A DNA stretch of 64,000 bases from contig JARKVD010000012.1 in NCBI GenBank assembly GCA_029851835.1, positions 32,830 to 96,829 of the forward strand, given 5' to 3'. This document shows positions 43,490-47,456 of this stretch, piece after piece. Position numbers and translations under genes: made by a program. Every line of letters begins with the position of its first letter. Position 1 is the first letter of the stretch. This DNA comes from Clostridium sp. (GTDB taxonomy: Bacteria > Bacillota > Clostridia > Clostridiales > Clostridiaceae). A model generated the notes under the pieces. The model did no database searches. It was given only the letters and a program-made list of their open reading frames with translations, and was not told where the DNA came from.

Positions 43490-43559
43490 TTTAATATATA
43501 TTCATGTATTAAATCCACCTCTTTGGTAATACTTACTACTAAGGAGGTGTATGTTTTTT

Positions 43560-44168
43560 ATGGTTAAAAAAGTCATCTTTGATGCATTGTCAGAAAACTG
43601 CATCTATAACATTAGGGAAGTAGTATCTCAAGAACTTGTTCAGGCTATAAAAGAAAATAAAGAAATTATAATTTTATGTATAGGCACTGACAGATCAACT
43701 GGTGATAGCCTTGGTCCAATTGTAGGAGATAAACTTAATTTTTTAATAAGAGATAATGTTTATCTTTACGGAAATCTTGAAAATCCAGTCCATGCTAAAA
43801 ACATAACCGAAATTAATGAATTAATTCTTAAAACCTACTCAAACCCTTATATAATTGCAATTGATGCATCTCTAGGAGATCTTCAGGATGTAGGAAAAGT
43901 TATAATTGAGTCTAAACCTTTAAGCCCTGGTTTAGCTTTAAACAAAAAACTTCCTCCTGTAGGTAATCTTAGTATAACGGGAGTAGTTAACATTTCTGGT
44001 TCACTTGAGTTTATGGTACTTCAAAATACAAGGCTTTATATAGTAATGAAGCTGGCGGAAACAATTTCATCTGGATTATATCATGCAATTTTAAAAACAA
44101 TTGGTGGTAGAAAGTCATCATCCATAACTAAAGAGGATTTTTTATTAGATATATCAAAGATTTTATAA
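43560..44168 (+). CDS. yyaC: Spore protease YyaC (GPR-like)
   Basis: ILCIGTDRSTGDSLGPIVGDKL; AIDASLGDLQDVGKV; KLPPVGNLSITGVVN. ATG at 43560 preferred: SD aaggaggtg ends only ~1 nt before the ATG at 43551. Confidence 0.92.
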   Translation: MVKKVIFDALSENCIYNIREVVSQELVQAIKENKEIIILCIGTDRSTGDSLGPIVGDKLNFLIRDNVYLYGNLENPVHAKNITEINELILKTYSNPYIIAIDASLGDLQDVGKVIIESKPLSPGLALNKKLPPVGNLSITGVVNISGSLEFMVLQNTRLYIVMKLAETISSGLYHAILKTIGGRKSSSITKEDFLLDISKIL

Positions 44169-44171
44169 AAG

Positions 44172-44215
44172 GTATAAATAATAAATGTTTCACGTGAAAC
44201 ACTTATTATTTATAC
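44172..44215 (+). terminator. Terminator-like palindrome of yyaC, concentric with parS
   Basis: 22-nt arms GTATAAATAATAAATGTTTCAC / GTGAAACACTTATTATTTATAC (one mismatch), then TTTTTTT. Confidence 0.75.
44186..44201. promoter_or_regulatory. parS site 1
   Basis: TGTTTCACGTGAAACA, a match to the Bacillus-type parS consensus. Confidence 0.93.
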
Positions 44216-44231
44216 TTTTTTTATATGAAAA

Positions 44232-44265
44232 GAAGATAAGATTAAATTAGTTTAACCTTATCTTC
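44232..44265 (-). terminator. Terminator hairpin for parA-parB-DUF4446
   Basis: gaagataag..cttatcttc just past the DUF4446 stop on the - strand. Confidence 0.6.
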
Positions 44266-44271
44266 AAAATT

Positions 44272-44775
44272 TTAATTATTTGTATGTATTGCTTGATGCA
44301 ATACACTACTTTCTTCTTCTGATAAATCATATCTAGAAATTCCATTGTCTATAGGTTTAGCGTAAGTAATGCTTTCATTTCTTGAATATATACTTGTTAT
44401 AATAACTCCGTTGTTATTTCCATCTAGCATTGCAATTGAATAGCTTAAATCACTTCCTACATCCTCAAATGCTTTATATCTCTTCATTGCTACCTTCTGA
44501 ACACATGAATTGATTAACTTTGAAGTGTTTTCACATATCTCTTTTACATTATCTGTTGTATCTTGCATGCTATCAATTTTATCTAATGATTTCACTATTA
44601 ATTCCTCAAGATTTTTGCTGTTAGTGCCTCTCATCATTTTTCTATATTTATTCTTCATTTTACTTGTAGATGCAATACATGATATTACAACTATAATAAG
44701 TATAAATACTAAAACTATTAATGCTAAAGTTATATATGTACCATAATTATTTATTAAATTTATTATCTCTTGCAT
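44272..44775 (-). CDS. DUF4446 family membrane protein
   Basis: N-terminal TM; ...YKAFEDVGSDLSYSIAMLDGNNNGVIITSIYSRNESITYAKPI; next to parB. Confidence 0.9.
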   Translation of the reverse strand: MQEIINLINNYGTYITLALIVLVFILIIVVISCIASTSKMKNKYRKMMRGTNSKNLEELIVKSLDKIDSMQDTTDNVKEICENTSKLINSCVQKVAMKRYKAFEDVGSDLSYSIAMLDGNNNGVIITSIYSRNESITYAKPIDNGISRYDLSEEESSVLHQAIHTNN

Positions 44776-44792
44776 ACTTATCCTCCTAAATT

Positions 44793-44808
44793 TGTTTCAC
44801 GTGAAACA
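44793..44808. promoter_or_regulatory. parS site 2
   Basis: TGTTTCACGTGAAACA immediately after the parB stop codon. Confidence 0.95.
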
Positions 44809-45666
44809 TTAAGCTTCTAGGATTTCTATTATTCTTTGTAAATCTTCTGGAGAATAATATTCTATCTCTATTTTTCCTTTGTTTTTAGAATTGTTATTTA
44901 TATTTACTTTAGTATTAAAGTGATTCTCTAATCTTACCTTAATATCTTTATAATATATATCTTCTACTGGTTTTCTAATTGGCTCTTTATCCTCTTGATG
45001 CTTGCCGTAATTCTTTACTAAACTTTCAGTTTGTCTTACATTTAGATTTTCATCAATTACTTTCTGTGCAACAATATATTGACTCTCTTTATTATCCAAA
45101 CCAAGAATTGCTCTTCCATGACCTTCAGAAATAACTCCCTCAATTAGATATCCTTGAATTCTTTCATCAAGATTTAAAAGTCTTAACGCATTTGCTATTG
45201 TACTTCTTGATTTCGAAACTTGTTTGCTTATTTCTTCTTGTGTTAAATCAAATTCCTTTAATAATCTTTTGTAAGCCATTGCTTCTTCTATTGGATTAAG
45301 ATTTTCTCTAATTATGTTTTCAATTAAAGAAATTTCTACTACCTCTTTTTCAGTTAAATCCTTTACTATTACAGGGACCTCTTTTAGATTTAACTGCTTT
45401 GCAGCTCTCCAACGACGTTCACCTGCAATAATTGTATATATATTATTTTCTTCTTTTACAATAATAGGTTGTATAATACCATGCTCTTTAATAGAATTAG
45501 CTAATTCCATAAGTTTTTCATCATCGAAGTTTTTCCTTGGTTGATCCTTATTAGGTTTAATTAAATTAATATCAATAGTTAATACTTGTTCCCTATCATT
45601 AAATTTCAAATCGCTTTCAGGTATAAGTGATGCTAATCCCTTGCCTAACGCACTTGTCTTTTTCAT
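44809..45666 (-). CDS. parB: Chromosome partitioning protein ParB
   Basis: KTSALGKGLASLIPE; IAGERRWRAAKQL; SLIENIIRENLNPIEEA. Confidence 0.96.
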   Translation of the reverse strand: MKKTSALGKGLASLIPESDLKFNDREQVLTIDINLIKPNKDQPRKNFDDEKLMELANSIKEHGIIQPIIVKEENNIYTIIAGERRWRAAKQLNLKEVPVIVKDLTEKEVVEISLIENIIRENLNPIEEAMAYKRLLKEFDLTQEEISKQVSKSRSTIANALRLLNLDERIQGYLIEGVISEGHGRAILGLDNKESQYIVAQKVIDENLNVRQTESLVKNYGKHQEDKEPIRKPVEDIYYKDIKVRLENHFNTKVNINNNSKNKGKIEIEYYSPEDLQRIIEILEA

Positions 45667-45667
45667 C

Positions 45668-46438
45668 CTAGTTTCCTCCTTGTCTACGAATAAATTCTTC
45701 AGTTAAAGCCTCGAAGGCTTCTGCCCCTCTACATTTATCATCATAGAGCATAATAGGTAATCCAAAACTAGGAGATTCCGCCAACTTAACGTTCCTAGGT
45801 ATAAATGTATCATATACTTTATCTTTGAAGTGATTTCTAATTTCATCTACAACTTCATTACATAATCTTGTTCTGCTATCATACATACTCATGATAACAC
45901 CTTCTATTTCTAAAGCAGTATTTAAATACCTCTTTATAAGTTGAATTGTACTCATTAATTGTCCAACCCCTTCAAGTGCATAGAATTCACATTGAATTGG
46001 AATTAAAACAGAATTAGATGCTGTTAATGCATTCAAAGTTAAAACTCCTAATGATGGTGGGCAATCGATAAATATAAAATCATATTGATCTTTAATTTCA
46101 TCTATTTTATTTTTTAATACCTTTTCTCTCTCTTCATGACCAACAATTTCAACTTCAGCTGCTGCTAAGTTCATATTTGATGGTGCAATATAAAAGTTAT
46201 CTATTATTTCACTTTTCTTAATAACTTCACCCAATGATACATTACTAGTTAGAACATCATACATTGAATAATTAATTTTTCTTTTATCGAGTCCTAATCC
46301 GCTAGTTGTATTTCCTTGTGGATCTATATCAATGGCTAAAACTTTATATCCGTTCATAGCTAGATATGAACATAGATTAATGTTTGTAGTTGTTTTTCCT
46401 ACTCCGCCTTTTTGATTAAATATACATATTACCTTCAT
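45668..46438 (-). CDS. parA: Chromosome partitioning ATPase ParA
   Basis: FNQKGGVGKTTTNINL; AIDIDPQGNTTSGLG. Confidence 0.96.
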   Translation of the reverse strand: MKVICIFNQKGGVGKTTTNINLCSYLAMNGYKVLAIDIDPQGNTTSGLGLDKRKINYSMYDVLTSNVSLGEVIKKSEIIDNFYIAPSNMNLAAAEVEIVGHEEREKVLKNKIDEIKDQYDFIFIDCPPSLGVLTLNALTASNSVLIPIQCEFYALEGVGQLMSTIQLIKRYLNTALEIEGVIMSMYDSRTRLCNEVVDEIRNHFKDKVYDTFIPRNVKLAESPSFGLPIMLYDDKCRGAEAFEALTEEFIRRQGGN

Positions 46439-46638
46439 TTTATTCCCCCCCTTTATGAAAAATTTGTAATATATTTATTTTGTTCAATTAATCTTAATTT
46501 AAACATATTTATGTTATTTTTCTACTGCAAATCTTGTAAATTCAACTATGTATTTATATTATATATTGATATAGATTTTATTTAAAGTAATTATTAGTAT
46601 AAAATGAGCACATATTTAAATTTTTCATTGTAAAATAA

Positions 46639-46676
46639 AAAAGTCTAAATGTTTCACGTGAAACATTTAGACTTTT
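46639..46676 (-). terminator. noc terminator: perfect 38-bp palindrome concentric with parS
   Basis: AAAAGTCTAAATGTTTCAC|GTGAAACATTTAGACTTTT, followed on - strand by T-rich tail. Confidence 0.88.
46650..46665. promoter_or_regulatory. parS site 3
   Basis: TGTTTCACGTGAAACA. Confidence 0.95.
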
Positions 46677-46679
46677 ACC

Positions 46680-47456
46680 TTACTTCTTCTTTATAGTAAT
46701 CGTAACTTGAATAGAATCATCTAACTCTTTAGAACGATACTTTGCATCTATTCCAAATTTATCAAATACTTGTTTTACAGTATTAACATATATGGCCGGA
46801 CTAAAAGAACCTTTAATTCTTTTCTTGCCATCTGCTGCAACTTCACTATGTTGTAACTTTAATAACTCTCTATCTATAGCTTCTTCAGTTTTTTTAACAT
46901 TTAAGCCTTCTTTAATTATCTTATCTAAAATTTTATACTGTAACTCACTATCCGGTAATTTTAACAGAGCTCTTGCATGTCTCTCTGTAAGCTTATTTTC
47001 AACTAAAGTATCAATTATATCTTGATTTAACTTTAAAATTCTAAGTTTGTTTGCAATAGTTGATTGCTTCTTACCTATTACTTCTGATAGCTGATCTTGA
47101 GTATATGAATGTACTTTTATAAGATTGTTATATGCTAATGCTTCCTCATAAAAGTTTAAATCTTCTCTCTGCAAATTTTCTAATAGTGCAATAGCTGCTG
47201 AATCAGTATCATTAATATTAGTTATAATAGCTGGAACTTCAGTTAAACCTGCTTCCTTGGCCGCTCTTAACCTACGTTCACCTGCAATTAATTCATAACC
47301 ATTTTCCGTTTCTCTAACAGATAATGGTTGAATTATCCCATATACTCTTATAGACTGAGCTAATTCTTGTATAGCTTCCTCATTAAACACTATTCTTGGT
47401 TGATAAATATTAGGTTGTATTGAGTCAACCGCTATATAATTAATATTATTTCCCAT
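46680..47456 (-). CDS. noc: Nucleoid occlusion protein (ParB paralogue)
   Basis: Second ParB/Spo0J-family protein (IAGERRLRAAKEAGLTEVP; ALLENLQREDLNFYEEA) in the canonical noc position beside rsmG-mnmG. Confidence 0.88.
   Translation of the reverse strand: MGNNINYIAVDSIQPNIYQPRIVFNEEAIQELAQSIRVYGIIQPLSVRETENGYELIAGERRLRAAKEAGLTEVPAIITNINDTDSAAIALLENLQREDLNFYEEALAYNNLIKVHSYTQDQLSEVIGKKQSTIANKLRILKLNQDIIDTLVENKLTERHARALLKLPDSELQYKILDKIIKEGLNVKKTEEAIDRELLKLQHSEVAADGKKRIKGSFSPAIYVNTVKQVFDKFGIDAKYRSKELDDSIQVTITIKKK

What the first reader, a model, noticed from the sequence alone, without database searches (positions are those of the whole stretch)
44172..46676. parS sites built into terminator palindromes around parAB-noc
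Three identical parS (TGTTTCACGTGAAACA) lie within 2.5 kb. Site 1 is exactly concentric with a 44-bp palindrome (one mismatch) followed by T7, just after yyaC. Site 3 is exactly concentric with a perfect 38-bp palindrome plus T-rich tail, just after noc. So one sequence appears to serve as ParB nucleation site in DNA and terminator stem in RNA. This could couple ParB loading to transcription ending, protect parS from polymerase passage, or let ParB affect readthrough.
Basis: partly seen in the sequence, partly recalled or inferred. Interest (0 to 1): 0.6.

Follow-up and report, generated by a model that had tools for sequence, protein, structure and literature searches.

The report
Centromere sites doubling as terminator hairpins
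In this clostridium two of the three DNA sites where the chromosome-segregation protein ParB loads also form the tip of an RNA hairpin that should stop transcription of the gene just upstream; relatives evolved the same fusion repeatedly with different flanking sequences, which points to economical reuse of a palindrome rather than to a special coupling of the two processes.

Summary
Three identical parS sites lie at 44186, 44793 and 46650. The first and third are exactly concentric with long palindromes that fold as strong hairpins with a T tract, directly after yyaC and noc. The middle one, inside the parAB-DUF4446 operon, has no arms. In 100 related loci, parS after noc has at least 8 complementary arm pairs in 30 of 103 cases; about 1.4 are expected when arms are swapped between loci. 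Arm sequences differ between lineages while pairing is kept. One genus shows it in 16 of 16 genomes, with compensatory changes. The T tract sits on the noc strand. Loci with a parS hairpin almost always lack a separate noc terminator (2 of 22 have one, against 32 of 38 without arms), so the hairpin stands in for it. The shielding and ParB-coupling ideas are not supported. RNA polymerase must copy all of parS to make the hairpin. In a sister genome parS is broken by a one-base deletion while the hairpin persists. Best reading: recurrent co-option of the parS palindrome as the tip of an ordinary intrinsic terminator, analogous to uptake-sequence terminators. I found no earlier report. Actual transcript ends and ParB binding remain untested.

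The parts
44186..44201 (.). parS site 1 (TGTTTCACGTGAAACA)
   Evidence: exact match
44172..44215 (+). 44-bp palindrome concentric with parS 1 (one mismatch pair); predicted terminator stem of yyaC, weaker tail on the minus strand
   Evidence: fold -22.2 kcal/mol on +, -21.5 on -
44216..44222 (+). T7 tract after hairpin 1
   Evidence: sequence
44793..44808 (.). parS site 2, between parB stop and DUF4446 start, no complementary arms, no terminator
46650..46665 (.). parS site 3
   Evidence: exact match
46639..46676 (-). perfect 38-bp palindrome concentric with parS 3; predicted terminator of noc
   Evidence: fold -23.8 kcal/mol
46629..46638 (-). T-rich tail (TTATTTTACA on the minus strand)
43551..44168 (+). 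yyaC (TIGR02841, PF06866)
44272..44775 (-). DUF4446 gene (PF14584)
44232..44265 (-). separate terminator-like hairpin of the DUF4446 gene
44809..45666 (-). parB (spo0J)
45668..46438 (-). parA (soj)
46680..47456 (-). noc (nearest solved chains are Noc; TIGR04285 313.6 bits against a cut-off of 315)

Best explanation
parS is a 16-bp perfect palindrome, so any transcript crossing it can form a 6-bp stem with an ACGU tetraloop. In this family parS sits at fixed spots, one of them a few bases after the noc stop codon. There it has repeatedly been extended by lineage-specific complementary arms, often A-rich on the 5' side, and a T tract, turning it into the apical part of an ordinary intrinsic (Rho-independent) terminator that replaces a separate noc terminator; the same has happened at the yyaC 3' end. 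ParB uses only the 16-bp core in DNA; RNA polymerase uses the hairpin and T tract. The two functions share letters but work independently. Shown: anatomy, non-chance arms, covariation, T-tract strand, replacement of ordinary terminators, separability. Inferred: real transcript ends, ParB occupancy, and independence of the two functions in the cell.
For: Arms of at least 8 pairs: noc-parA sites 30/103, yyaC sites 8/22, in-operon parB-DUF4446 sites 6/94 (Fisher p 3e-5 and 7e-4 against the in-operon sites). Swapping arms between loci gives about 1.4, 0.4 and 0.4. After collapsing similar flanks, 15 of 72 against 0.21. There are 16 distinct arm families at noc ends, and at least 9 to 19 state changes on the tree depending on definition. 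T tract on the noc strand 21:5, p 0.0025; T-rich tails in 25/30 hairpin sites against 7/61 without arms. Genus g33: 16/16 genomes concentric, 99.6% of cells paired, 6 pairs and 12 cells with changes on both sides against shuffled means of 1.7 and 2.5. A separate terminator is present in 2/22 with arms against 32/38 without, p 9e-9 without correction for relatedness. G005 keeps a -20.3 kcal/mol hairpin although parS has lost one base.
Against: No RNA 3'-end data. On the tree only 8 independent contrasts exist; the replacement is in the expected direction in about 4, never the reverse, and the rest are ties, so the phylogenetically controlled sign test is not significant. Six in-operon sites also have long arms but lack T tracts, so some palindrome extension happens without termination. 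The G005 deletion could be an assembly error.
Confidence: 0.8

Rival explanations
1. Functional coupling: ParB bound or loaded at parS alters termination or readthrough, or the paused polymerase alters ParB clamp loading, so that the fusion is selected for coordination.
For: Exact concentricity; ParB-family proteins can repress nearby promoters (PMC7022226, P. aeruginosa parS3/parS4) and the relative KorB silences at long range (PMC11790492).
Against: The fusion is present at only about a third of noc ends, comes and goes, is replaced by plain terminators next to parS, and persists when parS is broken. Site 2 lacks it.
Confidence: 0.07
2. Protection: placing parS in a terminator keeps transcription away from the ParB loading site.
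For: Two of the three parS sites lie at operon ends (after yyaC and after noc).
Against: The hairpin can only form after the whole of parS has been transcribed. A terminator upstream of parS occurs in only 11 of 85 loci, one just downstream in 21. The most widespread site (parB-DUF4446) is inside an operon.
Confidence: 0.04
3. Neutral palindrome growth: template switching at the parS hairpin during replication perfects the flanks, with no selection for termination.
For: Long arms without T tracts at 6/94 in-operon sites; correction of one arm by the other would also give paired changes like those in g33.
Against: Strong enrichment at gene 3' ends over in-operon sites, T tract on the gene strand, mutual exclusion with separate terminators, no long-armed intragenic site among Bacillota in the broad set. 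It may still supply the raw variation.
Confidence: 0.09

Closest known systems
Intrinsic terminators built from DNA uptake signal sequences (USS/DUS) in Neisseria and Pasteurellaceae (PMC1852404)
   Same: A DNA-level recognition sequence co-opted as terminator hairpin, enriched at gene 3' ends, with A/T tails; the authors also favour evolutionary expediency.
   Different: USS terminators are formed by pairs of oppositely directed copies of a sequence present a thousand times or more per genome; here a single inherently palindromic, low-copy centromere site forms the tip and lineage-specific arms do the rest.
Chromosomal ParABS parS sites near oriC (Spo0J/Soj of Bacillota)
   Same: Same 16-bp consensus, parAB neighbours, origin-proximal gene order gidA-gidB-noc-parA-parB.
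   Different: No report found of chromosomal parS as part of terminators.
Ordinary intrinsic terminators
   Same: Stem-loop plus T tract after a stop codon.
   Different: Loop and apical 6 bp are fixed by a DNA-binding site; stems are long and AT-rich.

Membership tests
Intrinsic (Rho-independent) terminator | stable RNA stem-loop directly downstream of a stop codon | tested here: met
Intrinsic (Rho-independent) terminator | T tract on the transcript strand after the stem | tested here: met
   T7 at 44216-44222; TTATTTTACA on the minus strand at 46638-46629; family-wide strand bias 21:5
Intrinsic (Rho-independent) terminator | pairing conserved while sequence changes | tested here: met
   g33 covariation, arm-swap tests
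Intrinsic (Rho-independent) terminator | transcripts end there | not testable with these tools
   no RNA data
Chromosomal parS of ParABS | TGTTTCACGTGAAACA consensus beside parAB | tested here: met
Chromosomal parS of ParABS | bound by ParB in the cell | not testable with these tools
   ChIP needed
USS/DUS-type co-opted terminator | hairpin formed by two inverted copies of an abundant uptake sequence | tested here: not met
   one palindromic site per hairpin; three exact parS copies in the assembly

The most novel reading that the evidence does not exclude
ParB loading and transcription termination influence each other at concentric sites: ParB clamps at parS change hairpin folding or readthrough into parAB, or a polymerase paused at the T tract gates ParB loading, making the site a cell-cycle-sensitive terminator.
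Probability: 0.07. Interest if true: 0.75.

Novelty: new variant of a known kind. Interest (0 to 1): 0.45.

Why it matters
It indicates that a centromere-like ParB loading site can share its letters with a transcription terminator, and that this has evolved repeatedly. If the hairpins terminate as predicted, ParB loading sites in these bacteria must tolerate being transcribed in full. Natural pairs of genomes, with and without arms, with intact and broken parS, make the interplay of ParB, SMC loading and transcription directly testable. Annotation tools that treat parS and terminators separately will miss these.

Tried and rejected
Shielding of parS from transcription: rejected by anatomy and by the family survey. 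An extended ParB recognition site: rejected because arms differ freely between lineages and most parS sites have none. Noc as the binder of these parS sites: disfavoured, because the residues aligned with solved Noc proteins (QSTIANKL...LKL, TERHARAL) are Noc-type (their role in specificity is from memory, Jalal et al. 2020). A known RNA family at the sites: none, only four tRNAs in the window. Earlier report of parS in chromosomal terminators: no paper found in the held library with the term sets tried. More genera to gain phylogenetic power added few genomes, and a family-wide pattern search was not analysed further.

Full report
WHAT IS THERE. The window is an origin-proximal segment of a clostridial genome. 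Gene order on the minus strand is trmE, gidA, gidB, noc, parA, parB, DUF4446; yyaC comes towards it on the plus strand. Three exact parS sites lie at 44186, 44793 and 46650, and they are the only exact ones in the incomplete assembly. Site 1 is the centre of a 44-bp palindrome with one mismatch pair plus T7, 3 nt after yyaC. Site 3 is the centre of a perfect 38-bp palindrome plus a T-rich tail, 3 nt after noc. Site 2, between the parB stop and DUF4446, has no arms. As RNA, parS alone gives only a 6-bp stem with an ACGU loop, -3.9 kcal/mol; the arms bring it to -22 to -24.

IS IT MORE THAN CHANCE. Random flanks with the window's dinucleotide make-up give such arms with a probability of about 2.5e-6 per site. 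I then fetched the region from 100 relatives of the same family, anchored on yyaC in nearly all cases and not selected for parS arms. parS occupies three standard places: yyaC-DUF4446, DUF4446-parB and parA-noc. I scored how far complementarity continues beyond the core, and compared with left and right arms swapped between loci. At least 8 pairs: parA-noc 28 of 103 against 1.44 expected; yyaC side 8 of 22 against 0.43; in-operon DUF4446-parB 6 of 94 against 0.44. With slightly longer arms the parA-noc count is 30. Collapsing similar flanks leaves 15 of 72 against 0.21. In a broad set of named contigs, Bacillota show the same excess (16 of 80 with at least 6 pairs beyond the three fixed by the search pattern, expected 0.42) while Pseudomonadota show none (0 of 29). 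In the Bacillota part no long-armed site is intragenic, whereas 15 of 67 short-armed ones are.

WHY I READ THE HAIRPINS AS TERMINATORS. (1) At noc ends the T tract is on the noc strand, 21 to 5 (p 0.0025); T-rich tails follow 25 of 30 armed sites and 7 of 61 unarmed ones. (2) In genus g33 all 16 genomes with noc have it. In 14 distinct sequences, 99.6% of cells pair; 6 pairs and 12 cells show changes on both sides, against shuffled means of 1.7 and 2.5 and no shuffle reaching them, and every slid register fails. (3) Replacement: where parS lies within 60 nt of the noc stop, a separate terminator-like hairpin is found in 2 of 22 armed loci and 32 of 38 unarmed loci (p 9e-9, not corrected for relatedness). 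On the tree this rests on about 8 independent contrasts, of which about 4 differ, all in the expected direction and none the other way, so the controlled test lacks power. (4) Recurrence: 16 arm families at noc ends, 19 state changes over all 98 scored loci or 9 in the restricted set of 60, against 18 for shuffled labels. The trait is inherited but arises or is lost often. (5) Separability: in G005, sister of G006, the noc-end parS has lost one base (TGTTCACGTGAAACA), yet the arms AAAGACTACAAAA / TTTTGTAGTCTTT remain and the hairpin still folds at -20.3 kcal/mol, against -27.8 in G006.

HOW IT WORKS, MOST LIKELY. parS was already fixed just after the noc stop codon: median 14 nt away in armed and 5 nt in unarmed loci among those within 60 nt. 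Its palindrome offers a ready loop. The end of noc is often A-rich, and in several genomes the last codons and the stop codon are part of the 5' arm. A few changes on the other side give a terminator that can replace the usual one just downstream. In other genomes the 3' half of parS (GAAACA) instead pairs with TGTTTT at the base of an adjacent terminator (L225, L227, L229, L252 and L267), a second way of sharing letters. ParB is taken to need only the 16-bp core, so both functions coexist. Shown: the sequence evidence above. Inferred: that transcripts end there and that ParB binds there.

Dual use: supported. Protection of parS from polymerase: contradicted by the anatomy, since the hairpin requires transcription of the entire site, and by the survey: of 85 loci with parS within 400 nt of the noc stop, 33 are concentric, 21 have a terminator just downstream, 9 overlap, and only 11 have one upstream of parS. 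ParB-controlled readthrough: no evidence, and the frequent loss and replacement argue against a conserved coupling.

RELATION TO WHAT IS KNOWN. The nearest analogue is the co-option of DNA uptake sequences as terminators in Neisseria and Pasteurellaceae (PMC1852404). I found no paper in the held library describing chromosomal parS inside terminators with the term sets tried. A review of chromosomal ParB discusses promoter repression next to parS and contains the word terminator nowhere (PMC7022226). Subscription papers could not be searched.

LIMITS. No RNA or ChIP data. Loci are family-level samples with unequal genus representation. The G005 deletion rests on one assembly.

Noticed in passing
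L225, L227, L229, L252, L254, L267 (noc 3' ends): The 3' half of parS (GAAACA) serves as the base of the 5' arm of an adjacent terminator, pairing with TGTTTT next to the T tract; a second mode of parS-terminator sharing, in about three lineages.
   Followed up: partly
L199, L294, L317-L327: Whole species groups use parS with an altered centre (CACATG or CATGTG) at the sites examined; in the RNA only the loop changes.
   Followed up: no
L271 (G098): All three local sites read TGTTCCACGTGGAACA, a symmetric double change, one of them concentric with a 44-bp perfect palindrome.
   Followed up: partly
L198 position 3762 in yyaC-forward orientation (G005): noc-end parS broken by a one-base deletion while the hairpin arms persist.
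   Followed up: yes
L327 / L211 (G110): noc reads as a decayed gene with four stops in frame, yet parS with arms is kept downstream.
   Followed up: no
L253, L211, L218, L202, L215, L248 (between DUF4446 and parB): Six in-operon parS sites have long complementary arms without a T tract on the gene strand; not explained by termination.
   Followed up: no
whole assembly G000: No near-exact copy of the Bacillus Noc site (ATTTCCCGGGAAAT with flanks; best has 2 mismatches) although the noc product has Noc-type residues; the Noc binding site here may differ.
   Followed up: partly
L296 (G017): Seven exact parS within 1.9 kb around gidB; one after the gidB end has a GC-rich concentric hairpin of -35.6 kcal/mol.
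   Followed up: no
L293 (G023): parA, parB and noc present but no parS within two mismatches in the region, and no exact parS in the genome.
   Followed up: no
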